64,000 nt of DNA from Ehretia macrophylla. Taxonomy: Eukaryota; Streptophyta; Magnoliopsida; Boraginales; Ehretiaceae. The stretch is from assembly GCA_037974665.1 (NCBI GenBank), contig CM075768.1, forward strand, positions 3,064,501-3,128,500, written 5' to 3'. The notes below the pieces were generated by a model. It saw only the letters and a program-made list of their open reading frames with translations. It was not told the DNA's origin and made no database searches. Positions within the stretch are counted from its first letter, which is position 1; every line of letters begins with the position of its first letter. Below, in pieces: positions 5,234-61,811 of this stretch. Both the position numbers and the translations under genes were made by a program.

Positions 5234-7546
5234 TGTGAAACCCTGGATTTCAGACTTGCATAGAATTGCGTGCTTTGACATGTTTATGGGTTATATGAGT
5301 TAGAATGCGCAAATTTTGTGATTTATATTCCTATTACATGCTATGTGTGCATTCATGAAATTTTCATCAAAATTGGCATTGGAAATTTCATTGTTGCTTT
5401 TTGTGAATCGTATTTTAAATACACGTCCGCTAAAATTTTTACACGGGTGTTTTAGGTGTTTTAAAACCTAGTCCTGATATCTTAATAGACCAGTGTCTGA
5501 TTAAAACGGATTTCAAATTGGATTAGAAATTTAAAGGTTTTTACCCCTTCTTTTGCAAAAATCGAGTTTTAACCGAGTCGGGGGTAAATGTGTGCTTGTG
5601 AATATTGTTGTCACCTAAAAATATGCTCCTTAAAATAGTCTAAGTGTTGTATGCATGTAAGTAAGCAAAATAGTCAAGAAAAACTAATTAAAAGACTAGA
5701 AAATCAACTTTGACTTTTATTATTTTGTTGACCTTAAGCTATATATGCATCAACACACATTGAAATAGCACAAAAACACCCTCAAAAGCACACACATGGC
5801 CGAGAGCCCTTAGAGAGAAAAAGAGAGAAAAGTTCAAGGTTTTTCAAAGCAATTTTGTCTTAAGAAACTCATTTTTTGGTCAAACCTTTTCAAACCGAGT
5901 TGGATTCCGCTTGTTGGGCACCTATTGCATGCATTCCAAGCCTTGTTTTGGACCAAAGGTGAGAGAAAATTTTTAGATCTCAAAATGCTATTTTGTGTCA
6001 ATTTCATATAATTGCATTTTTATCCGATAAAATGTTAAATTGCCTTTAGATTATTGCTCAGCAGTTGCCAAGGATCATTTATATGAGTTATAGCTGTTCT
6101 GAACGGTTGTAGTATGTATTTCTATTTTTCAGGTATTAAAGTTGAGTTATAGCTTCAATGTTGAATAATTGTTGTTGTGGCAGTTGGAATTGAGCGATTA
6201 TGGCTTCTAAAAGTTTGTTAATTGTGGGGTAGTTATGTTGTAGCAAAATCCTAAAATTTTCAGCCAAGAGCATTGCCAAAATTAGGGTTGTCGGGCTTGT
6301 TTTGGATGGCTTTTGATTGGTCTTTAGTGGGGTTATTGTAGTTACATGTGTGGTTGAGTGATAGAAAGTGGTTTGAAGGTTATTGGATTAGTAGATTATA
6401 AGTTATGATTATTGGAAGTTTTTGTAGTCTTTCTTTAAATGTTGAAATATTGTCTTTGGTTGTTTGGGTAGTGTTTGAGTGATTGAATCTTGGGTTGTTG
6501 TTGGTTAGATTCGGGTTTGGATGTGTGGTTTAATGCATATAAGTTGGGTGGCCTACTTTGTCATCTAACTTAGTGGTTTAGCTGTTAATTGATTAATTGA
6601 TGTTATGTTGTTGAAATGTTGTTAACTGATTGATGATTGATGATGCCGGGAGATAGGCAACCTACTTTTGTTGTCCTTCCGTGATATGAATGATTATTAT
6701 TATTATCAAGAGTCTTGATAAGTGTGTGCTAATTCTCGGGCAGCATTGGGCTGTCGGATTGATAACGGCATGACTATCACAGACTACCCCCAGCTCACAT
6801 GGGTAGAGATGCCATGGAAGGAGGGGCTAGATGAGGTACCTCGGGTGTGTATTATGGGGTGTTATAAGAAGATGGTTGAGATCGTGATGACGTTTGGAGC
6901 TATACCAACTAGAGTATCCTTTCACAATTGAATGGTCATTTATGTGGTTGAATTGAAAAGATGATGTTATTGAAGTTGTTATTGTTGTTGAAAAGATCTA
7001 TAGAATTCATCACTGGGCTTTGTTTTATATAAGCTCACTCTCAATCGTTATCTGCAATCAGGTGTTACTGAACCGGATTACGGGTACGTGCCTCAGGAAG
7101 CTGAGAATGTGCCTTACGTGGACGAGTCTTATGTGCCAGAGTCGTTACCATTAGTTTGTTATAGTTTTTGTAATATATTGTATTGTTCAACCTACTTAAG
7201 GATGAGCACTTATGTAATGCTAGTTTAGTAGTCTTTCTTTTGAATATGATTAGGTTGTTAGACTAGTCTATAATCTATTTTGCTAATGTATGATATAGCC
7301 TATGTATGATGTTGGAACGAAGGCTTATAACTTATGGATGAATTGTTGAATGGTTGTTTAATATGTGGAATGGTTATGTTGTATGTTGTTGAAATAGTTG
7401 TGGAGTTGTTGTTGTTCTTTGGAGTTATTTGTATGAAGTTATAAGGGGTTGGTTTAAAGCCCCGGTATCCGTGTTACTGTCGTTATACTGCCAAAATTTC
7501 ATTGTATCCTGACTGGTCGTAGGTGGAGTCGAGTTGGGGCATGACA
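5234..7546 (+). mobile_element. solo LTR, family B, TSD gtgtt
   Basis: It starts TGTGAAACCCTGG, ends GAGTTGGGGCATGACA, and is flanked by gtgtt at 5229-5233 and 7547-7551. It belongs to the same family as 20580-26715 (same sense) and 39794-42236 and 59357-61811 (reverse sense). No internal region, PBS or PPT is present, so it is a solo LTR of 2,313 bp. Two H1-type hairpins (6541-6571 and 6656-6676) and an H2 hairpin (7014-7037) are present. The 69-codon frame at 6722-6931 lies in its GC-rich island and is not supported as a gene. Confidence 0.92.
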
Positions 7547-7930
7547 GTGTTGAATGGGTGAAGTTATACTTAAGACTTGTAACTGGGTTGCTGGAATGAT
7601 TACTTGGATGATATGTTTAGCCAGAGTATATAAAGGTGGCTTCTGCTAAAGATAGAATTCTAATAGATATTGTATACTAAATAAGTGAAGTTATAAGTTA
7701 GCTAACCTAGCTGAATAATTAATGCATGTTGTAGTTAAAGAGTAATTGAAGTAATGCTTGCTCATAGGTTCAAGGTGACAGGAAATGTTGTGATCCAAAC
7801 TTACATCTTGGAGTTGATAAAGGTGAGGAACTCTTCATCCTTATGTGCATAATAGTTTATTTACTTGTACCTCGATTATGTGCCTTAATATAATTGTTAA
7901 GCATTGTGCACTTATTGTCTATATATTGTG

Positions 7931-7960
7931 TTGAGGGCAACCTACTTTGTTGTCTCTCAA
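7931..7960 (+). other. hairpin H1
   Basis: The arms TTGAGGGCAAC and GTTGTCTCTCAA pair over 11 positions (one G-U, one bulged T) around the loop CTACTTT. Equivalent hairpins with different stems occur in at least a dozen other places. Confidence 0.65.
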
Positions 7961-8808
7961 TCATGTGTTTATTGATATAATCTATTGTTATCATTTTGAG
8001 TGCATTACATCGTGGTTGCACAACCATTTGGGCATGGTAGTATCGTGGAAACCGGGCGACATTGGGCTTATTAGTCTACCTCGGCTACCATGGTTGCCCA
8101 GTCCTTCTCTCACTTAGGATTCCGCCCAGGGAGAGTTGAGTTGTAGGATTTCGGGGTACATCCAGAGTATACCTATTTTGGAGTTATAAGGGGATGCCGG
8201 CTTATCAATATCAGTGACATTATTACATCAGGATTTCAGTTCGTGGCTCGTGGTTCGTGATTGAAGAACAAGTTAATCGTATCATTTTTAATGTGTGGTA
8301 ACTTGTTGTTTCAATTGTTCTTTGGTTGTTAAATGCTCTATTTGTATTAACTGCTGCATTGCACGCCCCGGTAGACTTTATCCCTCATTGAGCAATTGTG
8401 ATTGCTTAGACCTCACTAAACATGTTTCAGGTGGCGCAGTTGGAGTAGTTGCCTTGGTTGATATGTGCTATTGATTGAGATTGGAGTGTTTGCCTACTAA
8501 ACTGTGGAAGACTTTATTTTTATTATGTTGTGTTCTATTTTGTGCCTATGGGTTTGTATATATTTGAAGTTGTTGAAGAATTGTAATAGCTTGGTTAAGG
8601 TATGGCTTGAATGGTAATAGATTGTGATAGTTTATCCTTACTTTCCTTTATACCGCTTGCTTGTGTGTTAATGAAAGTTAATATTCGTTTGGCTTTAGTT
8701 TATAGGAAAGTCTAATGGTTAAAATAGAGTGGTATGATAAGCAGATTAAAAAGATAAGGTTTCAAGGATTGATAAATGCATGCTTGTGTGTGTTTTCTAG
8801 GTCTTGCC

Positions 8809-11238: not shown

Positions 11239-11360
<122 letters not shown>

Positions 11361-13026: not shown

Positions 13027-13805
13027 GACATACAAACAGTTTAGATACAGACAAGCATGCATTCATAACTTAACTCTTTACAAAACCGCTTATCATGCCA
13101 CTCCATGATAGCTTTTAAGTATTCTTAGAAATTGAAAACAACCAGTCATTCACTCCCAAGCATGCGAAGCAGCTAATAGCAGAAATATAAGTTATTACAT
13201 GCCATGGTTCTAAATCTACCACTACAACATCTATCCCTCAATTTGCAAACTATATAATATACACATATCACTTAGGTTACAAAATAGAACATAAAGTAAA
13301 GAAAACAAGTCCTACTCTCATCAACAAGAACATAGTCCACCTCAAGCAACTAGACACAGCAACTAATGCAACTCCTCCAACTGCGCCACCTGAAACATGT
13401 TAGCGAGGTATGAGCAACCACTGTTGCCCAGTGAGGAATAAGGTCCCGGGGTGTGCAATGCGACAAGTAATACAGTTAACAACAATAACAATTGAGCAAA
13501 TCAAGAAACAATGATAGCTTAAATAACCACATATTTGAAAGGATACATTTCTCATAACCCCTATACACTAATCTTCACTGGTCTTCATTCACGATCCACG
13601 AACCACGATCATGATCACGATAAGCCGGCATAACCCCAAACACTCTAGTTGGTGTACTCCGGATGTACACCGATAATCCTACGACCCAACATCCCCTGGC
13701 AATCTCCGGACCAGGCGAATGAGGGACTAGGGCATGGAGTTTGAATATCCACCGGCAAGCCCTCTGCCGCCCAACTGATATTCAACACAACTGCCCCTGA
13801 CACTA

Positions 13806-13819
13806 TGGTTGCGCAACCA
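13806..13819. other. 14-bp perfect palindrome TGGTTGCGCAACCA
   Basis: The same palindrome occurs at 48985-48998, 52236-52249 and 57091-57104. A 12-bp core is at 24414-24425, TGGTTGCACAACCA is at 8013-8026 and GGTTGCAACC is at about 37313-37322. It always lies between H1 and the GC-rich island of an LTR. It could be a dimeric protein-binding site; no binding protein is known to me. Confidence 0.6.
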
Positions 13820-15734
13820 CGATGCAATGCACTTAAAAATGACAAATTAATAGCAATAATATAAGCATTAACACATAGGAGGATCAACAAAGTAGGTTGA
13901 CCTCGATGCAAATAGAATAGAAGCAATTATAGAAGCTAATAAGCAGTTTACAAAGGAACATATACAAAATAAGCATAGAATCATACCAAAAGCTCCAAAT
14001 CAATTTAAAATCACATATAAACACTCAAGAAGTCATACCATGGGTTTAGAAGTATGAGACAACCGAAATAGCACATAAATCCCTTTGTTTTTCAAACTAT
14101 TTCTCTTCCAAACCAAGGTTAATGATTCCATTTTCAAGGGAAACTCTCCCAACCTTCTAACTAACCCTCAAGGTACCCTCTCAACCCTCTAACTCATTCA
14201 AATGGCTGCGATTTCCCCGAAAGCCCCAAATTCCCTCTTATGGCTTTAAACTACACATACATTGTCCGGGCTTCAAACAAGGGATATCAAGGCTTCTATA
14301 GCACCTAGGTAGCTTAAGGATACTAGAATTGAAGCCCGAATCCACCCGGATTCGCATGAACCCCGAAACCCCTTTGTTAAAGTCGGCTATTTCACGTTTT
14401 ATGCGATTCTAGAGCAATTCAAGTGCACGGGGCTATTAGACTACCTTCATTAGCACCTAAGGCATCTATTAAGAGTGTTAAATCAAGCTAATATGTGCAA
14501 TTACACAAAACCCTAGAAAAACGTCACTATTCACCTCATAAATTCAAATGACGATTCCAACCGTTTAAAATGTGAACTAATAGCTCAAATGTGTTCTCTA
14601 GCACTTATATACAAGGTATAATAGCATAGATAAGCTTTGCAATAGCATTTGATAACATTTTCAACAAATCAAGAAAAATGTAACATTTTAGATATGCATA
14701 AAAAGTCATGAAAACCCTCACCAATTGCGCGTAGGAACTCTCGGGAGGCTAGCAAACACCCTAAACTACTTGCTCCTAGCTTGGCTTGGCTTGGCTTGAA
14801 GATTTGATGAGCAAAATCCTCTCATTCTCCTCCTACACTATTCTCGGATTTGCTACAGTGATTTTTCAGCATTTTTTTTGTTTTGTTCTTTGCTAGTTAT
14901 GAGCTAAGGTGGGTAATATAGGGTGCATAGTTGGGTGGGGTCAAGTTTGGGTATTTAAAAGGTCACTTATAATGCGCGTAGTAAGCTTAAAACGAGCCTA
15001 AAGTGAAGCATGTGTGCTAGTTAATTAAAACTCTAAGTTAGTTACGTAACACTATTCATTGAACTACTAAAATCATTTTCTAAACGAGCGCTCCTATCGC
15101 TTCTAGTTCAATTGCACATTTTTCTCACTCCTTTAACAATTAATATGATTTAATAAAAATGTTAATTCACTAATAGAATGTAGTTTGAAAACGGAGTGAA
15201 TAGTAGCTACAGAAGTCAGTTAGTAAAGTACAGAAGTAAATGCGCAAGCAAGGGATGCATCAGTAATTGAATGCATGGCTAAATCTCGGGCGTCACAATA
15301 GTGTTCTAATCTTGAAATTGGAAATAGTCTAATATGTTGTATTAGGATATTTCTAAATTTAAGAAAGATAAAAGTTGATTATATATTGATATAATACTTT
15401 TAAAGGACTATTGGGCTAGAGTTAATGTATGTGGACCTTAAAAGACAAGTTGATTTGGGCTTATGCCTTGTGTACATCTGCTTATGCTTGATTTTAACCT
15501 ATTGGGCCACTTTGTGTTAATGGGCTATGGACTTGTGTTTTTCTTTAAGTTTTGGACTTGCATATGAATGTTATTAATTATAATGGGTTATGAATTAATG
15601 GGTCATCATGTCTTGCGCTAATAAAAGGTGTTTTATGATTATGCAAAAAGTATGAGCTTAGTTTAATTTTTCATGTTTGATGAGTAGATTAAACTTGAAT
15701 GCTAGCAATTTTATATGTTGATTATTATATATAT

Positions 15735-18787: not shown

Positions 18788-18853
<66 letters not shown>

Positions 18854-24321: not shown

Positions 24322-24346
24322 GAGGACAACCTCTTTTGTTGTCCTC
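24322..24346 (+). other. hairpin H1, perfect 9-bp stem
   Basis: The arms are GAGGACAAC and GTTGTCCTC, loop CTCTTTT. It is the cleanest stem among the family A versions of H1. Confidence 0.7.
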
Positions 24347-24813: not shown

Positions 24814-27597
24814 TACCTCGCTAACATGTTTCAGGTGGCACAGTTGAAGGAGTTGCCTTAGTTGCTGTGTGATTGTTGTCTGAGGTGGATGTGCTTTCTA
24901 GTTTCTATGTGAAGAATTTGTTGTTCTATGTTATAATCTATTTTGGGGCCTTAAGGCTCATATATGTATTTGTGTAATATGTAAGTTGGAAGCCAGACGA
25001 CTGTAGTAGCAGTGGTAATTCTATGGCTTGTAATAACTTATATTTCTATTTCTTGTTGCTTTGCATGCTTGGGTGTGATTGTTTTGATACATGTTGGTTC
25101 AACTTCTAAGTATGTTTCAAAGTTATCATAGAATGGCATGATAAGCGGTTTTATGAAGAATTCAAGTTGGTTGCATGCTTGTGTGAATCTAAACTATTGT
25201 ATGCCCCAAGGCTCGGATGGCCATGAACCTTTGAACTTTAGTTATAAAAGCTTGCCTTATTGTGTTGTGACTTTCTTGAGTATTTACAGGTTTTCAGATT
25301 GTCCACGGTACAGGGGAGACTCTGTCCGTTTTTTCCTAAAATTTTGAGACCGGGTTGGGATTGGGTTGAGAATAGCTTGGTTATTAGAGCCTCCGGTCTC
25401 GTAAGGGATCGGGGCGTTACAGTTTGAGTGATTGACTTGTGAGTTGTTGATGGTTAGACTAGGGTTTGGTTGTGTGTTTAATGCCTATTGAGTTGGATGG
25501 CCTACTTTGTCACCTAACTTAATTGTTTCATGATTATATAGTTGTTGATTGTTAAATATTGTTTAATTGATTGTTGAAATACAGATTAATTGATTATTGA
25601 TTATTGATTGTTGTTACAAAACCATGAGGAGCATGCTCGGGGTTAATCTGGGGTGTTATATTGTTATCTGATTGTTATTGTTGTTATAAGTCGGGAGTCG
25701 GGCAACCAATGTTGTTGACTTCTCAAATTGTTATTGTTATTGTTATTATGAGTCGGGAGTCGGACAACCAATGTTGTTGACTTCTCGATTTGAGTCCCAT
25801 TGTTGTGAGCTTTGATAATGTTGTGTCACCTCGGGAGGCATCCTGGGCTGTGGGCACAGTTATTATGGCTAATCCCTATCTCGCATGGGCGGAGAGGCCA
25901 TGGGGTGTGGGTCTAGGTCAAGGTACCTCAAGTTTGTGTCATTGAGTTTGGAAGAGTTGATGAGCACTGAATTGGTTTATGGAGCTTCATCAGCAAATGT
26001 ATCGTATCCTTATTGTGTGTTTACAGTTATTGCTATTGTTGCATTTATAATGTTATTGATGTTCATTGTGTGTTTACTACTCAAATGATGATTTCTAAGG
26101 AGTATAGTAAATACTGTTAGAGATCTATCGAATCCTCACTGGGCTTGTTTTATATAAGCTCACTCTCAATTATTGCATGCATACAGCTGAAGTTGATCCA
26201 GGTTACGGGTACGTGCCCTAGAAGAGGATAATGTGCCATATGGGGACAAGTCCTATGTGCCAGAGTCTTGTCCCTGATTTATGATGTTGTACTTTTTGTT
26301 ATATTGTATATTAAACTTAGTTGTCTTGTATTTTACTTAAAAGTTCATGTTATATAGGATGTTTTAAAGATAGTAGATTAAATGTTGCTAGCTTAGTAAT
26401 CTTGTTTTGGAACATGATTAGGTTTCTAGGTGGGCTATAATCTATTTTGGATGTGTATGTTATATAGTAAATGTATTATGTTGGAACGGAGGCACATAAC
26501 TATGAAAGAGTTGATGAAGGAATGTTTAATGTATGAAATGGTTGCATTGTATGTTATTAATTTAATTGTGGAGTTGGTTGGTGACTTGTGGAGTTTGATG
26601 TATGTTGTTCTTAAGGGTTGGTTTAGAGCTCTGATGTTCATGTTACTATCGTTATGCTGCCGAAATTACGTTGCATCCTGACTAATCATAAGAGGGGTCG
26701 AGTTGGGGCGTAACAGAGAGAAATTTGTAGTGAGGCATAATATATGTAATATCTACAAGAAGTTTGCAAGAAGACCATTGGAGGCTTTCAAGGAGCTGGA
26801 GGTGCTTTGGATCATTGAGGAAAATCAAGAAGACAAGACCAAAGAAGACATAAAGATGTGCTTGTTTAGGTTTTAGTTTTGTCTTGATTTGATTCATAGT
26901 CCAAGTCCATGATCCACCATGATGTATGATTTTGCATGTATATTTATCTATTTGCCTATATGTGATGTATGCTTGAAATGAACTAATGTGCAAAGTGAGA
27001 CCTAATTAAATTTAAAATCTTCCTACGTGCAAACAATATTAGATTGTAAAGCGGTAAAAGTGTTTATCGTTGCCCTCCACTATCCTAGGTTATATTTGCT
27101 CGATTGGGTATGTTTTGGCTAACCCAAAGGTAGGAAGACATATTCCATGAAAGTATTATATTTACCTAGCAAGCATAGTGATGTTATGTTGTTCCAATAT
27201 CACGAGGTCAATAACGCACTAAAGCTGAGGTCCGGGATTCAAATTGTCGCAACACTGTGACGGTGGGTGTAATCTAACTAGATCACGTTTCCAATAATGC
27301 ACCAAAGCTGAGGTTACAGTGATTTAGGGGTAATATGACCATATCCTATATAGTGATATTGATAGTAATCGTTGCTAACTCTTTGTATATATATTCTAAT
27401 AATGCACCAAAGTTGAGGGGTATTCATATTAAAGAGAACTATGGTCACCTACTAATGAGTCTTTAATTAGATTCACGATCTCATTTAGGAAGTATGAGAT
27501 TCGATAAAATTAGTGGGAAGTATCATTTAATTAAAGGCCAAATTAAATGTTTTAACAAGTTTATGTCAACTAGCGATCTTATTTTCTGCATACGCTT

Positions 27598-35138: not shown

Positions 35139-35177
<39 letters not shown>

Positions 35178-35846: not shown

Positions 35847-35851
35847 CTTAA

Positions 35852-36186: not shown

Positions 36187-37365
36187 TGTCACGCCCCAAC
36201 CCAACCTATAGAGGCCAGACTAGGGTATGACCTAAATCATTATCGTTATTTTACGACTTTAACCGTTTGACTATAATTAATGCTTATTCGTTAGCCTAGA
36301 ACTCAAAATGTTTTTTCGAAAAACCGGCAGCATAATGGCTGTAATTAGGATCTTTGGTTTGACCTATTTTCTAGAACACCTCAAAATTCTGAATCTTTAA
36401 TTTGCTTACAACTAAAACCCTTGTTTTATCATCAATTGATATGCCCACTAGTTTATCTTGAAAGCTCCATTTGGATTAATAAGCCCTATCATGATAACTA
36501 CATGCCATTTATTTGTCAAATTCCTATTTATACAAGTACCTATTATCATTAAGCTTACAAATGAGTACCTTAATGAGTATAGGTAGAGCTAACTTAGTTG
36601 ATTCTTCACCTATTGGTTTAAACACCTAATGATAACTACTATCTATAATGATGAAAGGAAACTACCGAAATAAAAGAGTTCGTCCGGTTTATAGTTAGTA
36701 CAAACCAAAATTAGACCCCAAATTATGACGGGGGTCATTTACAACAACAACATAAATAGTCTTCAATTTAAACACAACATCCCTAATAATATCCATGTTC
36801 ATGAAAAACACGTAATGCACATAGTCATTCTAAAGGTTCATCAACTAGCACATTCTCTTTGGGCACCTGTTCCAATTCTACTTCACCTGTAATAACATAA
36901 AGAGGGTGAGTTCTTATAAACTCAGCGAGAAGGGGAATAAGTAACGGGGCCTTTGAAATTCTTTTCCGGTTAACTTGTGAAATCTCCTTTGGAAACATGT
37001 CATGTATTACAAGTAAGTTCATAACATAGCATAAATATAAATGAACACATTTACCACATCATTTCAAATGATACATTTCGTTTTCGCTTTTACTTTCGCT
37101 TTTGCAATCACATGTAGTGACCAGCCTTGAATATCATACTCTTTATCACTCCCGCATGGGTGTACTCCAGATTGTACACCAAACCTAAGACCCAACTCTC
37201 CGAGGGTAACAAAGTTTCAAGCGAGAGAGGGAATACGGACCACGGTAGTCACGGGAGCACCAGCAAGCCCTATGCTGCCCGGCGTTCATGAATCGCTACC
37301 ATGCCGAAAGAAAGGTTGCAACCTCGTATGAAATGCACATTTATGCCAATTAACATTTCACAATA

Positions 37366-37391
37366 GGAGGTCAACAAAGTAGGTTGCCTCC
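37366..37391 (-). other. hairpin H1
   Basis: In LTR sense GGAGGCAAC pairs with GTTG(A)CCTCC around CTACTTT, with one bulged A. It is another stem version with the same loop. Confidence 0.6.
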
Positions 37392-39793
37392 ATACACGTA
37401 TATGATCACATATTGACATGTTGGCATATAAGGCATCGTTAGAACGTATGATCACTTCATATACCAATTTAAAAGCATTTATATATTTATGGGCAGCCAC
37501 GTAATCATATACAATACAAGCCAAAGAATACATTTTAACAATATAACAAATGCATAAGAAGTATACAAATGTGTTATAATATCATATACAAGATCGGATG
37601 CACGAATAGTTAACGTATGACCCCATAATCAATATAATTCATGCATGAGGCTATAATAACTTTTCTAGGCAGTCCACAGCTTCAATTAAAACCTCAATTA
37701 TAAGTTATGTAAAGCATGATTTAATACTTAGAAGACCTAGTTTGCAATTAGGGTTTTAGGTTCATGCTCAGCTACAAGATTCGTCAACTATTAGCTACAA
37801 GGAACACTTAGATCATCATCATACATATCTAACAATTATTGGACAGCATTGAAACATTGCAAATATCATCATTAAAACCACATGCAAGCCATGAAATCTA
37901 CCGATATGAACACGAAATCATCAAAAGACATTATATACGTGTTTACCACTATGATTCAACCCTAAAATCAACATGGAACATTCTCCTAAGCATTTAAACA
38001 TTTCCGGGCAGCCTACTACGCAACTCATATAAATCAATTAAAGCCATGCAATTCATAGTGATCACCTTAAACAAGCATTTCAACCGACTAAGGGCTTCAA
38101 ATACATAACTACATGCTATAATAACCACCAATCTTCCAAGATATCATCAAGAATCAAACAATAACATGTGGCCAGCCTACTACATATCATAATAGCATCA
38201 AAATACATCATGAAACCAAGGAATTAAACCCCTAACAAGTATATAATTAACTATAGCCTTCATATACATGGTCATACTCAAGATTAACCAACATTCATCA
38301 TTAAAATGAACTAAGAACATAAGAATAGTCATTTAAACCAATCTGTCCAGCCTTAAACAGTCCATGCAATCCAAGTTCTAAGCACTACAAACATATGCAA
38401 TGGCCCGATATGCTTCAAATCACAATTTCTAGCAACCACAACCATAGATCTTCACATGCAAGACCATATACACATATATATATGCTTATGAACTTTAAAA
38501 ACATTTATAAATCAATTTGAAACCCTCACATTGCAACCCTATATCACATATTTCAGTTACGACCTTCACTAATTGTCCTAACTTTCATCAGTTAGTTACC
38601 CAAGTAAATGATCTCCAAATTCAATGAATCATATATCAAATTGAAGCTTTACGAATTCTTTAACTCTTACCGCAAACCTCATTCAATTTCAAGTTAAGAT
38701 ATAAAAGTTATAACCATTCTCATGAGACCGCACAACCAGTCCAGTTTTAATAACTATCTAGTATACCCTACGATGTTTTCCCTATTAGGTGGTCTTAACG
38801 TCCGAATTACCTCTCGTGTATTTCTGCAAGATATGTTAAAAACTGAAAATTCTAGCTGCTTACTAATTTTTGTCAATTTTTGAGATCGTTTACTACTTTA
38901 AAAGTGCTCAAAACTGTGAGGTCAGTGAGCTGTCCGAGATTCTTCAGTCATGTTTAAACTCATTATATTTGCTTCTAAGCATGCAGGACTATATCACATA
39001 TATACATATGCTTATAAGATTTAAAAACATTTAAGAAACAGTTTTAACCCTCACCTTAGCAAATCCTAGCTAGAAATGCAAGAGCCGCTTGTGAAATGGT
39101 CTTGAAAGTGCCAAATCTCTTCTCTTCCAAGCTTGGCCGAATAGAACTCTTGTTTTTCCTTGGCCGAAAATGGAGAGCTTAGGAGAGTGGTTGAGTGTTC
39201 TTAGCAATTTTCCTTGGCTTAGGCAAGATGTTGAGAGCCTTAGGGAGTATTCTTGAGTCTTGAAAGCTTCTTGAAGATGGCTGCCTTTCTAGGTCCGAAA
39301 ATGGAGAAAAATAAGAGAGAATGGAGAGAAAATGAGAGTTTTCGGTGTGTTAGGTTTTAAGAGGGAGATTTAGAGTGTTGTTTTGTTATTTTGATATAGT
39401 TTGACTTGTTTTTGTCTGGGTGTGTTGCTAGGTCCGAAAATTAGAGCTTGTGTGTGTGTTTTGAGTCATGTATGGGTGCAATATTTTAGATATCTTGTGT
39501 CTTGTGATTGTAGTATTTTAGGTGTCTAGTGTTTAGTGTAGTGTAGACAAAGTGTGTAAGAATGTTTAGAGTTTAGGAAAAGTGTATAGAAGATGTTGGC
39601 TTAGGTGTTTGTGTAGCATTGAAGTTAGAATATAATATAGGGTATGTTTAGAGGTTTGTGAGGTTTTGTCTTGTAGTGATTTGAATTAGGATTAGAATAA
39701 TGTTAGTGGAAGATGTAGGATAGTTTTAATAATATTTTAGTGTTAGTGGAGTTTGTAGGATTGGTTTAATAGTATTTAAATAGTTAGTGGATT

Positions 39794-42236
39794 TGTCACG
39801 CCCCAACTCGACCCCACCTACGATCAGTCAGGACGCAACGGAATTTCGGCGGCATAACGACAGTAAACATATTTCCGAGGTTCTAAACCAACCTCATAAA
39901 ACATCATACATCCCGTAATTCCTCAATATAAACAACAACATACAACACAACCATATTATATAATAAAACATCCTCGTTATACGCCTCCGTTCCAACATGA
40001 CATACAATACCTCAACTTTAACATACATTTCAAAAGTAAGTTGAGACACAACTACAATTTAACCATAGACAAAAGGAAACCGCTAAGTTAACATCATTAG
40101 GTTCATCATCTTTTCAATATCTATTACATTAAGAACCGTAAAGCATATAAAGTCTATTAAACTAATATACAAGACATTTAGCAACATAAAGTCATAGATA
40201 AGACTCGGGAACATATGACTCATCCACAAAAGGCACATTTTCCACATTCTCCTCTTCAGGAGGCACGTACCCGTAATCTTGTGAAAGTACACCTGAAACA
40301 TGCATTAATAGAGAGTGAGCTTATATACATAAGCCCAGTGAGGATCCGATAGATCTCGACAGTATTCACTACGCTCCTTGGATTTAGTCCTTTGAGCAAG
40401 TAAACACACAACAACAATAATAACATAAATAAAGCTATCATCACATAACTATATGACCATTCAATAAGGATACTCTATTTGGTGTAGCTCCAAACGCCAT
40501 CACGATCTCAACCGTTCTTCTTATAACTCCCCATTACTCACGCACCCGAGGTACCTCACTATCCCCTTCCCTCCATGACATCTCCGTCATGCGAGCTGGG
40601 GGTAGCCTATGGCAGTCATGCCGGTTTCAACCCGACAGCCCGACGCTGCCCGAGAGGTGGCACACACATACCAAGGCTCCATTTTCATCAATCATCATGC
40701 AAGCATAAATCGATCAATCAATTGGGAGATCAGCAACAAGAGTGCCCGATTCCCGCATTCAATAATAATCAATCAATAACATCAATATAACATCAATATA
40801 ACATCAATATTAAATTAAACATCAAACAACGTAGTTAGATGACAAAGTAGGCCATCTAACCGGACATGCATAATATTCATAATTAAACTCTAAATTACTC
40901 AACAACAACTCACCATTCATCACTCGAACACTACCCAACCATCTAAGGCATCGTTCAAGAAATTAAAGAATGACAACCTAACTTCTAAAATTCATAACTT
41001 ACAATCTACTAATCCAAACATTGCCAAATCAGTTCCTATCACTCACCCATTCAACCTACTACATTAGCCCTCTCGGAAATCCACCATAACACCTCCAAAA
41101 CATGCCCGATAACCCTAAAACCCTATGACGTCATGGCTGGATTTTCCGGATTTCCACACAAACAATGTAATCGAAAATTCGGCATTACAACAGCGCTAAC
41201 ACGTAATTATCAAGTATTTAGAAATCGACGGCAATCGATTTCGAGCAACGCAACTCAATTAAATCAACTTTGAACATTTTAATCAAAATTAAATACCCGG
41301 AAAATAAAAATTATGCTATATCCGACAGAAACTTGTAGTATTAGTATATAATGATCCCTAGCATGCAAGGAGCAATAATCTATCATCAGATTTCAATTCT
41401 AACGGTTCAATCTTCATTTATACGCAAAAACACAAAAATGACATTTTGAGATCTAGAATTTTTCTCTCACCTTAGATGCGATATAAGCCTAGGAATGCGT
41501 GCAATGCGTGCCCAACAAGCAGAATCCAAGTCGGTGCGAAGTTTCACGGACAAAAACTAGGTTTTTCTTTGAAAAATTGGATTGAAAGCTTAAGTTTTTC
41601 TCTTCTCTTTTCTCTCCTCTTCCTCTCGGCAATGTGTGTGTGTGTGGTGGTGTTTTTGTGTTGTGTGAGTGTGTGTTGAGGACATAAGCTTAAATGGTCA
41701 ACTATTTAATTAAAGTCAAAGTTATTTTAATAGGTAATTTTGTGTTTTTAATGTCTTTAATTGCATTTTAGTGATCACCAAGTTAAAATTAATTATGCAA
41801 CCCCCAAGATATCTCAAGTGAGTTATTTTTAGGTGACAAGAAGTTTTACATTCAAAGAATTCCACCCGAGTCGGCTTAAAACTCGATTTTCGCAAAAGTC
41901 GGTGTAAAAACCCTAATAAATTCTTAAGCCGATTTTAAAACCGTTTTCATCAAACACAGGTCTATTAAAGTCCGTGGACTAGGTCTAGAAGGGTTAAAAA
42001 GACCAGTTTCAAAATTATAGCGGACGTGTTTCGAAAACACTATTCACTGAAAATCGACGATAAAATTTCTGACTCCGATTTTGATGAAAATTTCATGAAT
42101 GCACATTTAGCACGTATTAGAAGTATTGAAATCAAAATTATAACTTTCTAGGTCCTATAGCACATAAACAGGTTATATGCACGCAAAACGAGGTAAAACA
42201 CGTAAAACGAGATAAGCAAGAAAGTGGGGTTTCACA
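39794..42236 (-). mobile_element. solo LTR, family B, TSD ggatt
   Basis: It starts TGTCACGCCCCAACTCGAC and ends GTGGGGTTTCACA; ggatt flanks at 39789-39793 and 42237-42241. It is 2,443 bp long. H2 (40316-40337) and a perfect 8-bp H1 (40834-40860) are present. Much of it (about 40245-41580 and 41815-42160) is almost identical to 59357-61811, while the rest is clearly more diverged. The 71-codon frames at 40575 and 60138 are copies of each other for that reason. Confidence 0.95.
40834..40860 (-). other. hairpin H1, perfect 8-bp stem (family B)
   Basis: Arms GTTAGATG and CATCTAAC enclose an 11-base loop that in LTR sense reads GCCTACTTTGT. The loop matches the family A hairpins while every stem base differs. 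An identical copy is at 60397-60423. Confidence 0.75.
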
Positions 42237-52156: not shown

Positions 52157-52184
52157 TGAGGGCAACCTACTTTGTTGTCCCTCA
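52157..52184 (+). other. hairpin H1
   Basis: TGAGGGCAAC pairs with GTTG(T)CCCTCA around CTACTTT, ten pairs with a single bulged T. Confidence 0.7.
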
Positions 52185-52640: not shown

Positions 52641-55082
52641 TGTAAAACCCGGCACGTGACCCTATACGTAATTATACTATTAATAATGCATTTATAACAT
52701 TTCATATGCATGAGCATCAATTCACATGCATTAATATCATTTAACGTGCATATTCATCGTTTTATGTGTCAAAATGTTCATTTACGTGCATTTAAGTTTT
52801 TTTGGTATAACGTAGGCATTAATTATATCCTAGCAATACAAGTCTATCAACTAATTAGTTGCAATTCAACCAAAAGGGCAAACCAGCAAAACATGACTTA
52901 GTTGGAAGGCAAGGTGGTCATTTGGCTCATTAGATATTTGATCACCTAATAACACTATTCTCTCCCACTCAAAACACACACAAACACACTCAACACACAA
53001 AAATTCTGCAATACACACTATACACACTACACTACTCAACCAAAGAGAGAAAGAAGAAGAGAAAGGGAGGAAGAAGAGGGAATGAAGAAGGGTTTAAGGG
53101 CATTTTCTTCAATCCTTTATCATCTTCAAGCTCCATTGAGCCTCCATTGTTGCATCTAAGGTGAGGGTTGTTTTCTTAAAAGTTTTCCAAAGCTACATTG
53201 AGTATGATTGTGATTATATATGTGTATTAATCTTGCTATAGATTGTGCATAAAGACTTGGATTGTGATTTGTTGGGTTTGTGTTCTATTTGAGTATTGTT
53301 GGTAATTGTTGATTAGATGATGTTTTTACATGCTTGGTGGAGGTATTGAAGAGTTGATGAGGTGGGATTGAGTTGGATATTCATGTGTTGCTACAGGTAG
53401 GAGAGTACTGATATTTGGTGTTGTTAGAAGAATGTGTTGTAGAAGATTGAGTTTTTCCCGTCAGGTCATCCGGGAGATATAGCCTTCATCCAGTTGACTG
53501 GATGAAGCAGGTAACGGCCGGATAGGGATTCTCTACTGGGCGTAGAGGCCTCCATCCAGTCGCCCGGATAGGGGCTATAATGCCTGGATGCTTGACAAAT
53601 TTGCGCAGTGATTTTGCGGAGGCCATATCTTATTCGTTTTAGCTCCGAATTGCGCTCCGTTTGATTCTAGAGTCATCTACTTTCAATAAAATTTAATTAT
53701 AAACCAAGATCATGTTAATTGGAATTTGGGAAAATAGGTAAATTATCTAATTAATTTAAGTTAATGTAAAAGTATTGGAAACGCTTGTATGATGAAAAAT
53801 CTTCCTTATTGACCTTCACATTGTCTTTATGAATTCTAAAAGTGAGATGTTGTATTTGCTTACTCGTTGATATGTTGGAATATGTTCATGGATAATTGTA
53901 TGCTTAGTATGCTTGAATAAATTTGGCTCATGTATAAGTTTAAACATGTTTGGATTATGCTCAAATCATGAATATGCTTGAATAAGCTTGAATCATATAT
54001 ATATATATATGTTCGAATATGCTTGCTTGTTATACGGGTTTGAGCAACCTACTTTGTTGCCTCCCCTCTATGTTATTATTCATGTTATGGTTACAATGTT
54101 AACCACTACGGGCGCAATGGTTACAACCGCATTATGGGCATGGTAGCGTTCGTTTCCTCTGGGTAGCATCGGGCTACCAGTCAGTCTCAACTACCATGGT
54201 CCCTGGTGGATATCCAGATATCACCTAGGGGTTTGGGGATATTGATAAAGATTGATCCAAGGCCGGCCGTCTACAACAACTGTAAGAACAACCGTATCCT
54301 TTTAATATTATGTGTTACCACTCCCATAGAAGTCTTTGCCCTGGGAATTGGGTTATCTATTGCTATAGCCTATTATTTATATCCTGTTAACTTATTGTTA
54401 CGTACATTGCATGGCATGGTTTTCAAAAGGATTTCGAAAAGGAAAAATGTTTGCAAAAATCACCTGTGACCTTTAACCCTCCCTGAGCTAGTTGTAGCTC
54501 ATTCCTCTTTCTTTACTATTTCAGGTATAGTTAAGCCTGCCATGGGATGGAAAGCTCCAGTTCTTTGTTGAGTTGGATCTTCTGCCTTTTTTATCCTACT
54601 TGATGTCATGATGTGCTCTCTTATGTTATATTATTGTATGATGTAAATGAGAATACTTGTAGGACTGTACTTATTCTTTTGGATAGGTAGGTTGTAAATA
54701 ATTAGTTTATTGTTCTTTTGAGGTCTAGATACAGTAGTTGAACCTAGAAGATGTAATCTGAAGGATCTCAGTCTTGCAGATAAGTATTTGTTGGTTGTAA
54801 TTTTAATTATTAGTGATGAAGTTATATAATGCATTTTATTAGAATTAGGTTATCAATGGGTGAAGTAATTGTGATAATTAACAACATGGATGTTTAGTTC
54901 ATCGAAATCAGAGCCCGGGCTAGTATATTGTGCCTTAGCGGATCTAAGAGGAGTGATCTTCTTAAGCTCGTGGCATCATGATCCCGGATTTGGAAGTCTA
55001 TGTAAGTTGAAGGTAATCATTCTTGTTTCATTAATGCGGTATCAGAGACTATTACATTAACTAGGAAAATGGGATCGTGACA
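52641..55082 (+). mobile_element. solo LTR of a distinct subfamily, TSD ccatc/tcatc
   Basis: It starts TGTAAAACCCGGCACGTGAC and ends ATGGGATCGTGACA; flanks are ccatc (52636-52640) and tcatc (55083-55087), four of five equal. It is 2,442 bp long. Its first 170 bases hold repeated ACGTGCAT-like strings. H1 (54042-54063) and H2 (54484-54501, TGAGCTA/TAGCTCA) are present, while the palindrome is degraded (about 54116). A GGTATCAGAG string at 55038-55047 lies 35 bases before the end and looks like a PBS, though it is inside the unit as I delimit it. Confidence 0.8.
54484..54501 (+). other. hairpin H2, perfect 7-bp stem
   Basis: TGAGCTA and TAGCTCA enclose GTTG, another stem variant in the same position before ATTTCAGGT. 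Confidence 0.65.
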
Positions 55083-56084: not shown

Positions 56085-58586
56085 TGTAACGCCCCGATCC
56101 CTCACGAGACCGGAGGCTCTAATAACCATGCTATTCTCAACCCAATACCAAACCCGGTCACAAAATTTTAGGGGAAAAACGGACAGAGTTTCCCCTGTAC
56201 TATGGACATTCTGAAAACCTGTAAATTCTCAAATAAGGTAACTACAAGGTAAACAAACTTTTCATGGCTAAATATTTAAAGATTCACGGCCATCCGAGCC
56301 TTGAAGCAAACAATAGTTCCAAAACCACACAAGCATGCAAGTAACTTGTTTATAATATAGTCTAATAACCATGCCATTCTAGGATAATATTAAAACATAC
56401 TTAGAGATAAAACATTATACACTAAGCCATTCACTCCCAAGCATGCAAAGCAACTAGAAATAGAAATATAAGTTATTACAAGCCATAGAATTACCACTGC
56501 TACTACATTATCAGACTTCCAGCTTACATATTACTCAAATACATACATGAGCTTTAAGGCCCCAAAATAGATTATACATAGGACAACAAATTCTTCACAT
56601 AGCAACCAGAAAGCACATCCACCTCAGACAAATATCACACAGCAGCTAAGGCAACTCCACCAACTGTGCCACCTGAAACATGTTAGCGAGGTATGAGCAA
56701 CCACTGTTGCCCAGTGAGGGATATAGTCCTGGGGCGTGCAATACAACAGATAATACAATTATACAACAATATCACTTAGACAATTTAAGAAGCAATGATA
56801 ACATAAGTAACCACACATTTAAAAGGATACATTTCACACAATCCCCTATACACCAATCTTCACTGGTCTTCATTCACGATCCACGAACCACGAGCACGAT
56901 CACGATAAGCCGGCATAACCCCAAACACTCCAGTGGGTGTACTCAGAATCTCCCCCGATAATCCTACGACCCAACATCCCCTGGCAATCTCCGGACCAGG
57001 CGAATGAGGGACTAGGGTACGGAGTTTGAATATCCACCGGCAAGCCCTCTGCCGCCCAGCCGATATTCAACACATCCGCCCCTGACACTATGGTTGCGCA
57101 ACCACTTTGCAATGCACTTAACAATGGCAAGTTAATAGCAATAATATAAGCATTAACACATATGAGGATCAACAAAGTAGGTTGACCTCGAGGCAATTAG
57201 CATAGAAGCAATTATAGAAGCTAATAAGCAGTTTACAAAGGAACATATACAAAATAAGCATAGAATCATACCAAAAGCTCCAAATCGACTTGAAACCACA
57301 TATAAACACTTAAGGAGTCATGCCATGGGTTTAGAAGTGTGAGTCAACCGAAATTGCACCTAAACCCCTTTGTTTTTCAAACTATTTCTCTTCCAAACCA
57401 AGGTTAATGATTCCATTTTCAAAGGAAACTCTCCCAACCTTCTAACTAACCCTCAAGGTACCCTCTCAACCCTCTAACTCATTCAAATGGCTGCGATTAC
57501 CCCGAAAGTCCCAAATTCCCTGTTATGCCTTTACACTACACATACAATGTCCGGGCTTCAAACAAAGGATATCAAGGCTTCTATAGCACCTAGGTAGCCT
57601 AAGGATACTAGAATTGAAGCCCGAATTCACCCGGATTCGCATTAACCCCGAAAGCCCCAAATTAAAGTCGACTATTTTACATTTTTAGCGATTTAAGGAC
57701 AATGCAAGTGCACGGGGCTATTAGATTACCTTCACTAGCACCTAAGGCATCTATTAGAAGCCTTTAATCAAGCTAATTCGAGCAATTACGCAAAACCCTA
57801 GAAAAACGTCACTATTCACCCTAAAAATCAAACTAACGATTCTAACCGTTTAAATTACGAAACGATGGCTCAAATATGTTCTCTAGCACTCATATACAAG
57901 GTATAATAGCATAGATAATCAATACAATAGCATTTGAACACATTTTCAACAAATCAAGAAAATAGCAACTATTTTAAAATGCAAAAATAAGCCGTGAAAT
58001 CCCTCACCAATGCGCGTAGGAGCTCCTAGGAGGCTAGTAGACACCCTAAACCACTTGCACCTAGCTTGGCTTGGCTTGGAATGAGGATTTGTTGAGCAAA
58101 AAAACTCTATTTCTTCTCCAATGCAATTCTCGGATTTGCTACAGTGTTTTCAGCATGCTCTTTTTTTTTTTTTTTTTTTGCTAAGTTATGAGCTAATGTG
58201 TGTGTTGTGTGAGTTATATATTAAATGGGGCTAAGTTGCTTGCTTAAATGGTTCACTAAATGCGCTTAGTTAGCTTAAAACGAGCCTAGATAGTAAAATG
58301 AATGCTAGCTAATTCATTCCCTAAGTTATGTTACGTAACACTATTCATTCAACTACAAAAATTATTTTCTAAACGAGCTCTCCTATCGCCTCTAGCTCAA
58401 TTGCACATTTTTCCCACTACTTTAACAATTAATATGATTTAATAAAAATACTAATTAACTAATAGAATGCAGTTTAAAAACGGAGTGAATAGTAATTTAA
58501 GAAGACAATTAATAAAGCATAGAAAGAGGTGTGCAAATAAAGGATGCAACAGTAATTGAATGCATGGCTAAATCTCGGGCGTCACA
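56085..58586 (-). mobile_element. solo LTR, family A, TSD gaggg
   Basis: It starts TGTAACGCCCCGATCCCTC and ends CTCGGGCGTCACA; gaggg flanks at 56080-56084 and 58587-58591. It is 2,502 bp long and closely related to 12798-15297. It holds H2 (56693-56712), the GC-rich island, TGGTTGCGCAACCA (57091-57104) and H1 (57164-57189). A T run of about 20 bases lies near 58160. Confidence 0.95.
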
Positions 58587-59356
58587 GAGGGTATATTATA
58601 ATCTATGTTGTACAAGAATGCATGTATATTCTTTTGTCTTTAAAGTTATTCATGAGCTACATGTTGTTATCTTGTTGAATTCGTGAAGTTAATTGCTATC
58701 CATGTGAGTTAAGTCCTATTTATATGCAAGTGATAATTAGCAAAGCATGTTCCGAAGCATGTAAACTTGAGCTTAAATTGAAGTAGCATATGTTTTAGTA
58801 ATTATTATGCATGCTAATGCTTATGTGCTCGAGAATGGCCTACTTTGTCATTCCTCACTTACGTGCTATCAAATGTTAATACAATGCGTGCTATATCATG
58901 TTTACATGCTATGTGCTATCACATGTTTACGTGTTAAGTGATATCTCGTGTATCTCGTATCTTGTGTATCTCATGTCAATGGTTGCACAACTATCTCGTT
59001 TGGGGCGGATGTGTTGGGCCTTCCTGGGCGGCATCAGGCATGTCAGTGGCTGGTTTCTCAACCTCTGTACCCTATTTTATCTCTTGCTAGGGCACACATT
59101 GCTACCCCAAGAGGATTTTCTCGTTGGGGCACACAATGCTACCTTGGTAGAGTTTGGTCATAGGATATTTGGGGTACATCAGAAGTACACCCACTGGAGG
59201 GAATGGGATTTACCGGCATTATTATCGTGTTCGTGCTCGTGATCGTGATCGTGATCATCATCGAGTTGGAGTGATAAGGGTTGAATCGAAATCGTATCCT
59301 TTTTTAACTATTATCTAGCTTCATAAACTTGAATGATTATCTCGTATTAATGTGGT

Positions 59357-61811
59357 TGTCACGCCCCAACACGACCCCTCCTATGATCAGTCAGGACGCA
59401 ACGGAATTTCGGCAGTATAACGACAGTAAATAGGATACCGAGGCTCTAAACCAACCTCATTAAACATCATACATCCAGCAACTCCTTAATTCAAACAACA
59501 ACATACAACACAATCATAATATACAATAAACCATCCTCGTTATACGCCTCCGTTCCAACATAACATACAATACTTCAACCTTATCATGCATTTCAAAAAT
59601 AAGTTGAGACATGTTTACAACTTAACCATAGACAAAAGAAAGCCACTAAGTTAACACCATTTGGATCATCATCTTCCAACATCTATTACAATAAGAACCA
59701 CAAAGCATATAAAAGTCTATTAAACTAATACACAAGACATTTAACAACATAAAGTCATGGATAAGACTCGGGAACATATGACTCGTCCACGTAAAGCACA
59801 TTTTCCACATTCTCCTCTTCAGGAGGCACGTACCCGAAATCTTGTGAAAGTACACCTGAAACATGCATTAATAGAGAGTGAGCTTATATACATAAGCCCA
59901 GTGAGGATCCGATAGATCTCGACAGTATTCACTACGCTCCTTGGATTTAGTCCTTTGAGCAAGTAAACACACAACAACAATAATAACATAAATAAAGCTA
60001 TCATCACATAACTATATGACCATTCAATAAGGATACTCTATTTGGTGTAGCTCCAAATGCCATCACGATCTCAACCGTTCTTCTTATAACTCCCCATTAC
60101 TCACGCACCCGAGGTACCTCACTATCCCCTTCCCTCCATGACATCTCCGTCATGCGAGCTGGGGGTAGCCTATGGCAGTCATGCCGGTTTCAACCCGACA
60201 GCCCGACGCTGCCCGAGAGGTGGCACACACATACCAAGGCTCCATATTCATCAATCATCATGCAAGCATAAATCGATCAATCAATTGGGAGATCAGCAAC
60301 AAGAGTGCCCGATTCCCGCATTCAATAATAATCAATCAATAACATCAATATAACATCAATATAACATCAATATTAAATTAAACATCAAACAACGTAGTTA
60401 GATGACAAAGTAGGCCATCTAACCGGACATGCATAATATTCATAATTAAACTCTAAATTACTCAACAACGACTCACCATTCATCACTCGAACACTACCCA
60501 ACCATCTAAGGCATCGCTTAAGAAATTAAAGAATGACAACCTAAACTTCTAAAATTCATAACTTACAATCTACTAATCCAAACATTGCCAAATCAGTTCC
60601 TATCACTCACCCATTCAACCTACTACATTAGCCCTCTCGGAAATCCACCATAACACCTCCAAAACATGCCCGATAACCCTAAAACCCTATGACGTCATGG
60701 CTGGATTTTCCGGATTTCCACACAAACAATGTAATCGAAAATTCGGCATTACAACAGCGCTAACACGTAATTATCAAGTATTTAGAAATCGACGGCAATC
60801 GATTTCGAGCAACGCAACTCAATTAAATCAACTTTGAACATTTTAATCAAAATTAAATACCCGGAAAATAAAAATTATGCTATATCCGACAGAAACTCGT
60901 AGTATTAGTATATAATGATCCCTAGCATGCAAGGAGCAATAATCTATCATCAGATTTCAATTCTAACGGTTCAATCTTCATTTATACGCAAAAACACAAA
61001 AATGACATTTTGAGATCTAGAATTTTTCTCTCACCTTTGATGCGATATAAGCATAGGAATGCGTGCTATGCGAGCCCAACAAGCGGAATCCAAGTCGGTG
61101 CGAAGTTTCACGGACAAAAACTAGGTTTTTCTTTGAAAAATTGGATTGAAAAGCTTTGAAATTCTCTTTCTTTTTCTCTCCTCTTTCTCTCGGCCATGTG
61201 TGTGTTTGTGGAGTGTTTTTTGTGTTGTGTGAGTGTGTGTTGATGACAAGGAGTATTTAAAAGGTTGGTCAATGAAAAAAATGCAAAGTCAAAGTTAGTT
61301 TTAATAGGTATTTTTGTGTTTTTAATGACTTTAATTGCATTTTATTGCTCACCAAGTTAAAAATAAATATGCAACCCCCAAGATATCTCAAGTGGATTAT
61401 TTTTAGGTGACAAGAAGTTTTACATTCAAAGAATTCCACCCGAGTCGGCTTAAAACTCGATTTTCGCAAAAGTCGGTGTAAAAACCCTAATAAATTCTTA
61501 AGCCGATTTTAAAACCGTTTTCATCAAACACAGGTCTATTAAAGTCCGTGGACTAGGTCTAGAAGGGTTAAAAAGACCAGTTTCAAAATTATAGCGGACG
61601 TGTTTCGAAAATACTATTCACTGAAAATCGACGATAAAATTTCTGACTCCGTTTTTGATGAAAATTTCATGAATGCACATTTAGCACGTATTAGGAGTAT
61701 TGAAATCAAAATTATAACTTTCTAGGTCCTATAGCACATAAACAGGTCAAATGCACGTAAAACGAGATAAAACACGTAAATCGAGTTAAAGCAGAAAAGT
61801 GGGGTTTCACA
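59357..61811 (-). mobile_element. solo LTR, family B, TSD gtggt
   Basis: It starts TGTCACGCCCCAACACGAC and ends GTGGGGTTTCACA; gtggt flanks at 59352-59356 and 61812-61816. It is 2,455 bp long. H2 (59879-59900) and H1 (60397-60423) are present. It shares long near-identical blocks with 39794-42236, separated by diverged blocks. Confidence 0.95.

What the first reader, a model, noticed from the sequence alone, without database searches (positions are those of the whole stretch)
6541..60423. Covarying hairpin H1 with invariant CCTACTTTGT loop
Stems differ completely between LTR families while the loop stays: GAGGACAAC/GTTGTCCTC (24322), TGAGGGCAAC/GTTGTCCCTCA (52157), GGAGGCAAC/GTTGACCTCC (37366, sense), GTTAGATG/CATCTAAC (40834 and 60397), AGTTGGGTG/CATCTAACT (6541), GAGAATG/CATTCCTC (58831). 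Others are at 6656, 7931, 13879, 25491, 54042 and 57164. A fixed loop on a compensating stem is typical of a protein- or RNA-recognised hairpin. Its conservation between LTRs whose flanking sequence no longer aligns is striking.
Basis: partly seen in the sequence, partly recalled or inferred. Interest (0 to 1): 0.85.

Follow-up and report, generated by a model that had tools for sequence, protein, structure and literature searches.

The report
Retrotransposon RNA hairpin inside LTR intron
Many jumping-gene ends in this genome carry a small RNA hairpin whose loop hardly changes while its stem does, and it sits inside an intron that is sometimes spliced out, so it probably labels the unspliced copy of the RNA that becomes the next generation.

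Summary
The hairpin is real and far above chance: 11 exact CCTACTTTGT in the window against 0.19 expected, and 80,965 against 5,382 for the reversed string in the window's 1.58-Gb assembly. Own arms pair much better than exchanged arms (0 of 500 permutations), and G-U pairs favour the sense RNA. The loop is CUACUUU on a C-G pair; the stem varies within limits, so 'stems differ completely' is too strong.

New here: H1 lies inside a GT-AG intron within the LTR of Ty3/gypsy chromovirus-like elements. Genomic copies lacking exactly this intron show splicing in two families: one full element with both LTRs intronless and a GAGTG target duplication, a solo LTR with CTGCC, and one 3' LTR. Such LTRs are 4 of 10,117 counted by matched patterns. 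H1 opens a roughly 300-nt predicted RNA domain.

Best reading: a cis signal present only in unspliced RNA, most likely for selecting genomic RNA, much as retroviral packaging signals sit behind the splice donor. Structure and intron are supported by the genome; the function is inferred.

The parts
6540..6572 (+). H1 hairpin, TAAGTTGGGTGG-CCTACTTTG-TCATCTAACTTA
6648..6680 (+). second hairpin of the same LTR, F1-like stem, 8-nt loop CTACTTTT (variant)
5959..7061 (+). predicted LTR intron (AAAG|GTGAGAGA ... AATCAG|GTGTTAC) holding both hairpins
7930..7961 (+). H1 hairpin; no donor found upstream in the strict test
13879..13904 (-). H1 hairpin GAGGTCAAC/GTTGATCCTC
13390..14721 (-). predicted LTR intron holding the hairpin at 13879
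24322..24346 (+). hairpin with perfect stem but loop CTCTTTT (variant)
25488..25522 (+). H1 hairpin; no acceptor found
37366..37391 (-). H1 hairpin GGAGGCAAC/GTTGACCTCC
36887..39054 (-). predicted LTR intron holding the hairpin at 37366
40833..40861 (-). H1 hairpin GGTTAGATGGC/GTCATCTAACT
40293..41470 (-). predicted LTR intron (CATCTAAG|GTGAGAGA ... TTTCAG|GTGTAC)
39794..42236 (-). solo LTR, TGTGAAACCCC..GGGGCGTGACA, flanked by GGATT on both sides
52157..52184 (+). H1 hairpin; donor-like site at 51349, no acceptor found
54036..54066 (+). H1 hairpin, weaker stem
53161..54524 (+). predicted LTR intron holding the hairpin at 54036; acceptor found by the looser patterns only
   Evidence: strict acceptor test failed
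57164..57189 (-). H1 hairpin GAGGTCAAC/GTTGATCCTC
56673..58007 (-). predicted LTR intron holding the hairpin at 57164
56085..58586 (-). solo LTR flanked by GAGGG on both sides
58831..58856 (+). H1 hairpin; no convincing splice sites found around it
60396..60424 (-). H1 hairpin GGTTAGATGGC/GTCATCTAACT
59856..61034 (-). predicted LTR intron (CATCAAAG|GTGAGAGA ... TTTCAG|GTGTAC)
59357..61811 (-). solo LTR flanked by GTGGT on both sides
185..210 (-). degenerate copy of the hairpin (closing C changed to A)

Best explanation
H1 is a sense-strand RNA hairpin (7-nt loop CUACUUU on a C-G pair, variable stem, often one bulged base) inside a spliceosomal intron that lies within the LTR of a group of Ty3/gypsy chromovirus-like retrotransposons, probably in their leader RNA. 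Spliced RNA loses H1 and the roughly 300-nt domain it opens; unspliced RNA keeps it. The most likely role is a cis-acting mark of the unspliced genomic RNA, read by a trans-acting factor (the element's Gag or a host RNA-binding protein): selection for packaging first, export or splicing restraint second. Supported by the data here: the structure, the compensation, the sense-strand bias, the position between conserved splice sites, and exact intron loss in copies of two families. Inferred: transcription start upstream, trans recognition, and the packaging role.
For: Compensation. Sense RNA rather than DNA: over 30 unique arm pairs G-U pairs are 23 of 296 in sense stems and 5 of 275 in antisense stems; mean energy -11.2 against -9.6. 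Loop nearly constant when only the stem is fixed: 94 of the 100 listed copies in one family (13,669 copies in all) and 98 of 100 in another (11,260 copies). Intron: both splice sites at the expected places around 25 of 43 loops against 1.2% of 12,600 random positions. Exact intron loss: the F1 junction occurs twice, in LTRs that jump from donor to acceptor, one of them a solo LTR with TSD CTGCC. The F2 junction occurs twice, in the two LTRs of one element, about 98.5% identical, with PBS and TSD GAGTG. Rarity of spliced integrants: 2 against 7,787 intact donors and 2 against 2,326. Three loci with 3.5-kb non-autonomous-looking elements (L024, L025, L027) keep H1. The hairpin is duplicated in tandem at 98 and 184 bp. 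Domain of further stems: 17 of 49 predicted pairs have a change on both sides in at least one of six sequences. No conserved cis partner for the loop.
Against: No RNA data: transcription start, polyadenylation and the spliced fraction are not measured. Some spliced RNA did retrotranspose, once as a full element, so the intron is not absolutely required; its 3' LTR RNA may still have held H1. Rarity of spliced integrants may only mean that spliced RNA is rare. Even after splicing, 29-33 ATGs remain before gag in three loci, so the spliced RNA is not an obvious gag messenger. The intron is not clearly richer in T than exon 2 (0.35, 0.35, 0.35, 0.38 against 0.41, 0.40, 0.34, 0.38; for L011 only part of the intron was measured). 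The sense strand folds better in only 12 of 30 arm pairs, the rest being equal or worse. F3 and F4 junctions were not found (0 each). The strict two-site test failed in 18 of 43, though looser patterns recover several F4 acceptors. The two F1 breakpoints lie in a shared AG|GTG and could in principle be microhomology deletions.
Confidence: 0.5

Rival explanations
1. H1 is an intronic splicing regulator: a host RNA-binding protein binds the CUACUUU loop and holds back (or promotes) removal of the LTR intron, setting the ratio of spliced to unspliced RNA, without any role in packaging.
For: Same anatomy: where an acceptor was found, H1 lies about 470-580 nt before it. Families with Pol proteins only 73-75% identical share one loop, which suits a shared host factor. 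Exon 2 often starts with GAA/GAG-rich sequence that looks like a splicing enhancer (the label is recalled).
Against: Does not by itself explain a ~300-nt domain with further compensated stems.
Confidence: 0.25
2. H1 and its domain are an RNA export or stability element for unspliced RNA, comparable in role to the transport elements of mouse IAP and MusD.
For: Unspliced intron-containing RNA must leave the nucleus; such structured elements are described in a review (passages). Domain structure.
Against: No Rfam match at gathering score in the window and none below E 9.2 on one copy of the domain. No export data.
Confidence: 0.15
3. H1 is a DNA-level element (protein-binding palindrome or cruciform) of the LTR enhancer; the intron is ordinary leader-intron enhancement of expression.
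For: It is in the LTR, and leader introns often raise expression in plants (recalled).
Against: G-U pairs concentrate in the sense strand (23 of 296 against 5 of 275); the stem sequence changes while pairing persists, which a double-strand-binding protein would not need.
Confidence: 0.08
4. H1 is a selfish passenger: duplicated and inherited by descent with no function, its stem held by recent common ancestry.
For: In the first 100 listed sites 98 fall into four stem families, so most copies descend from a few amplified lines; related rows inflate covariation counts.
Against: Between families most flanks no longer align while the loop is identical, and arms covary even within inner-pair classes. 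The F4-like LTR with the intron at 5959-7061 has two hairpins of different stem type; at the corresponding downstream place L022 and the window LTR at 39794 have lost the loop.
Confidence: 0.02

Closest known systems
Retroviral packaging signal behind the major splice donor (HIV-1/MLV type)
   Same: Structured hairpins located where splicing removes them, so only unspliced RNA carries them (general concept recalled; only the start of the abstract of PMC5035971 was seen, in the listing).
   Different: Here the intron lies wholly inside the LTR, and Gag binding is untested; the loop is not self-complementary.
BARE1/BARE2 of barley (Ty1/copia), distinct RNA pools
   Same: Plant retrotransposon whose spliced and unspliced RNAs have separate roles; its non-Gag relative BARE2 keeps dimerisation and packaging signals (abstract and passages of PMC3735527).
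   Different: [quoted passage not shown] here it is 1.1-2.2 kb, in the LTR, in Ty3/gypsy elements, and contains a conserved RNA domain.
Ogre (Ty3/gypsy Tat) and EVADE (Ty1/copia) introns
   Same: Partly spliced introns in plant LTR retrotransposons (passages of PMC6317226 and PMC12786077).
   Different: Those introns lie between or within coding regions; a 2025 review passage names them as notable exceptions to generally intronless plant elements.
IAP RTE and MusD MTE transport elements
   Same: Structured RNA elements acting on full-length retroelement RNA (passages).
   Different: No sequence relation tested or shown; different hosts.
Conserved LTR motifs of Benachenhou et al. 2013
   Same: LTR-wide conserved elements, with stem-loops mentioned for long R regions (passages of PMC3601003).
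   Different: Plant Metaviridae could not be modelled there because of variable LTR length; no such hairpin in the passages seen.

Membership tests
Ty3/gypsy chromovirus, Tekay/Del clade | gag, protease, RT, RNase H, integrase in the Ty3/gypsy order | tested here: met
   Pfam order in L011 and L012; best PDB sequence match of the L012 frame is Ty3 Gag-Pol
Ty3/gypsy chromovirus, Tekay/Del clade | chromodomain at the Pol C terminus | tested here: inconclusive
   PF00385 E 0.0014 and 0.0064, 18.9 and 16.8 bits, below the 25.1 cut-off
Ty3/gypsy chromovirus, Tekay/Del clade | PBS to tRNA-Met and 5-bp target duplication | tested here: met
   TGGTATCAGAGC just after the LTR (tRNA identity recalled, tRNA-Met found in most chromoviruses per passages); TSDs GGATT, GTGGT, GAGGG, CTGCC, GAGTG
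Ty3/gypsy chromovirus, Tekay/Del clade | RT/INT phylogeny within the clade | not tested
   no reference proteins of the clade were at hand
Spliceosomal intron | GT-AG ends and precise removal | tested here: met
   (F1 and F2; not found for F3 and F4)
Spliceosomal intron | plant introns more U-rich than flanking exons | tested here: not met
   T fraction 0.35-0.38 against 0.34-0.41 in exon 2 over four loci; exon 1 not measured
Retroviral-type packaging signal | structured element confined to unspliced RNA | tested here: met
   H1 between donor and acceptor; the intronless LTRs lack it
Retroviral-type packaging signal | binding by Gag and need for packaging | not testable with these tools
   needs protein and particle assays
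Retroviral-type packaging signal | spliced RNA largely kept out of reverse transcription | tested here: inconclusive
   4 junction LTRs of 10,117 counted, but the spliced fraction of RNA is unknown
Dimerisation kissing-loop (DIS type) | self-complementary loop or complementary loop in the same RNA | tested here: not met
   CUACUUU is not a palindrome; AAAGTAG absent in 12 of 15 loci
Any Rfam family | match at gathering score | tested here: not met
   0 in the window; best E 9.2 on the domain of L013

The most novel reading that the evidence does not exclude
A whole group of plant-type chromoviruses keeps its genome-selection signal inside an LTR intron. Splicing of the same transcript therefore decides between a coding or discard RNA and a genome RNA, the loop-reading factor is shared across families and by non-autonomous parasites, and the stem is free to drift. 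This would be a retrovirus-like packaging switch built into the LTR itself.
Probability: 0.33. Interest if true: 0.86.

Novelty: new variant of a known kind. Interest (0 to 1): 0.72.

Why it matters
How LTR retrotransposons, which fill much of many plant genomes, tell the RNA to be copied from the RNA to be used is open outside a few Ty1/copia cases (as far as the abstract and passages show). Here the genome itself archives part of the answer: an intron inside the LTR, spliced retrocopies, and a compact loop motif present in tens of thousands of copies, ready for binding and probing tests. Annotators should also expect intronless LTRs and can count them as splicing records. My paper searches showed no report of such an LTR intron or of this hairpin among the titles and abstract starts listed; they cover only the open-licence library, fixed word forms and capped lists.

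Tried and rejected
Initiator reading: the loop resembles a plant transcription initiator (recalled consensus) with TATA-like sequence before it in a few copies; rejected after viewing other families without it. Kissing loop within the element: not supported. Known RNA family: none. IMG/VR scan for the 15-mer CAACCTACTTTGTTG: 53 stretches, which I judge near chance from a rough estimate of collection size, not a computed one; not pursued. Plasmid collection: no match for window 6300-6900. Exon 2 as a coding exon reached from exon 1: rejected for the two F1 junction copies, whose upstream in-frame stretch has no ATG. Extension of Pol into the LTR acceptor: no suitable donor seen near the Pol end in four loci (the exon-2 frame printed in that script was off by one and is not used). 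Host identification by a RuBisCO search did not complete; 'plant' is inferred from element type and genome size. F3 and F4 spliced junctions: none. F1 junction breakpoints lie within a shared AG|GTG; the F2 junction shares only G on either side.


Full report
Observation. The exact string CCTACTTTGT occurs 11 times in the window; dinucleotide shuffles give 0.19 on average and at most 2. All 11 sit in hairpins. The assembly that holds the window (1.58 Gb, 20 contigs, unnamed) has 40,334 + 40,631 copies against 2,669 + 2,713 for the string read backwards.

Structure. The loop is CUACUUU closed by C-G. In 55 of 55 sites found by CCTACTTTG in the window and loci L009-L028 the next base is T, so the second pair is A-U or G-U. 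The first 100 listed genome sites with arms (67,419 sites match, those whose arm ends are A being excluded by the pattern) fall, by a crude script, into four main stem types: F1 GGAGGCAAC/GTTGTCCTCC, 47; F4 GTTRGATGGC/GTCATCTAAC, 20; F2 GAGGTCAAC/GTTGATCCTC, 18; F3 GAGAGTAAC/GTTATTCTC, 13; and two others with a weak G-U-rich stem. A second search with GGC..GTC inner pairs gave 267 further sites with many stems, control 1. Own against exchanged arms: -9.7 against -6.0 kcal/mol, 0 of 500. A count on 18 hand-chosen distinct hairpins: 100% of inner cells paired, shuffles 90.2%; covariation score 0.593 against 0.375; 0 of 500 for both, while two further measures were not above the shuffles. That tool warns that related sequences can exceed every shuffle without structure, and the 18 were chosen as hairpins. 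One unexpected limit: purine at the fourth 5' position with A-A-C is almost absent (6 against 486). G-U pairs concentrate in the sense strand (23 of 296 against 5 of 275), although the sense strand is the more stable one in only 12 of 30 arm pairs. With only the stem fixed, the loop is exact in 94 of 100 and 98 of 100 listed copies; requiring intact stems favours young copies.

Host elements. Twenty 10-kb stretches around clustered sites show long LTRs, several ending GTGACA, with PBS TGGTATCAGAGC. The seven frames scanned hold gag, protease, RT, RNase H and integrase domains of Ty3/gypsy type between them, two of them with an SH3_Tf2-1 domain; the chromodomain is weak. Pol proteins of F1 and F2 are 73% identical, F2 and F3 75%. 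The window copies at 39794-42236, 59357-61811 and 56085-58586 are solo LTRs with 5-bp target duplications. Two other LTR families in the window (17333/33677 and 9676/44765) lack the exact loop.

The intron. In F1 to F4 a donor ([A/T]G|GTGAGRR) lies 0.6-1.7 kb before H1, and in F1 to F5 a YAG|G with a branch-like CTCAY (or CTTAC) before it lies about 0.5 kb after it. Around 43 loops with full flanks the strict test finds a donor in 38, an acceptor in 27 and both in 25, against 12.8%, 2.0% and 1.2% of 12,600 random positions; related copies make these counts non-independent. F1 junction search: two hits, reversed control none. Both are F1 LTRs aligned up to the donor and again from the acceptor. 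One (L085) is a solo LTR with CTGCC on both sides. The other is the 3' LTR of an element whose 5' LTR still has the intron, the two being 97.5-97.7% identical on either side, so that copy had a recombination or conversion history. F2 junction search: two hits 6.2 kb apart. They are the 5' and 3' LTRs of one element: PBS behind the first, polypurine tract before the second, 18 mismatches in 1,168 aligned bases (a few of them flank), GAGTG on both sides, no exact loop in the two 3-kb loci. This is what reverse transcription and integration of a spliced RNA leaves behind. F3 and F4 gave none. The patterns allow one mismatch, so diverged spliced copies would be missed.

The domain. An alignment of six LTRs of F1, F2, F3 and F5 from H1 onward yields 49 consensus pairs, 17 with a change on both sides in at least one sequence, in several stems over about 300 nt. 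No shuffle control was run for this prediction, and a few predicted long-range pairs at the H1 base are doubtful. Rfam has nothing for the copy tested.

Mechanism. Because splicing takes out H1 with its domain, any function at RNA level belongs to unspliced RNA (or to the excised intron). Non-autonomous-looking elements with a ~1-kb internal region (L024, L025, L027) keep H1, as expected for a signal needed in cis. The loop has no conserved partner in the element, so a trans factor is likely. Spliced integrants are rare and in the searches made appear as single events, not as amplified families. I therefore favour selection of genomic RNA, then splicing control, then export. Against this: spliced RNA was copied at least once in full, the spliced leader still has 29-33 ATGs before gag in three loci, the intron is not richer in T than exon 2, and nothing here measures RNA.

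Known systems. Retroviral packaging signals behind a splice donor are the closest in logic (recalled). BARE's separate RNA pools are the closest in plants (abstract and passages). Ogre and EVADE are the intron-bearing plant elements named in the passages seen, with introns in or between coding regions. None of the passages seen describes an intron inside an LTR or this hairpin. I call it a new variant of a known kind.

Noticed in passing
L011, L012, L013, L017, L018, L019, L022, L026 and window 7062, 40292, 36886 (start of exon 2): Exon 2 often starts with a short acidic reading frame in one fixed phase that ends after 19-32 codons in most copies of coding families (for example EEEQVQEPEDNVPNDEPLE, VVEADPIEVIEEEEQVEVFP); it is interrupted in one L009 copy, runs on at window 7062, and is lost in L024, L025, L027. 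In F1 the synonymous/nonsynonymous counts are 192/261 in that frame against 48/413 and 87/242 (pairs not independent). The two F1 junction copies show no in-frame ATG upstream, so its start is unexplained.
   Followed up: partly
L086 and L084 (C5:72.40-72.42 Mb): One element has an intron in its 5' LTR and none in its 3' LTR, with 97.5-97.7% identity on both sides, which standard reverse transcription does not give.
   Followed up: partly
L016, L018, L020-L025, L028, L084-L086: Many of these LTRs lie in or beside tandem arrays of a roughly 650-680-bp repeat.
   Followed up: no
L028 4550-4754; C1:506507-506691; C1:1403372-1403556: H1 with its surroundings is duplicated in tandem at 98 or 184 bp within short stretches.
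   Followed up: no
window 6540-6680; L022 minus strand; window LTR 39794-42236: One F4-like LTR carries two hairpins with the loop (one an 8-nt variant), of different stem type, about 110 bp apart; in L022 and the LTR at 39794 the downstream place has lost the loop, which looks like turnover.
   Followed up: partly
window 17333-19521 with 33677-35846, and 9676-12076 with 44765-47068: Two other LTR families with TGTT..CTTTCA-type ends and a tRNA-Met-like PBS at 12078 and 19524 lack the exact H1 loop; they look copia-like (recalled label).
   Followed up: no
C1:665653-665686 and C1:2149938-2149971: Two identical sites with the loop but an unusual weak stem GGGTTCTTTTGGC/GTTCAGAGATGCCC.
   Followed up: no
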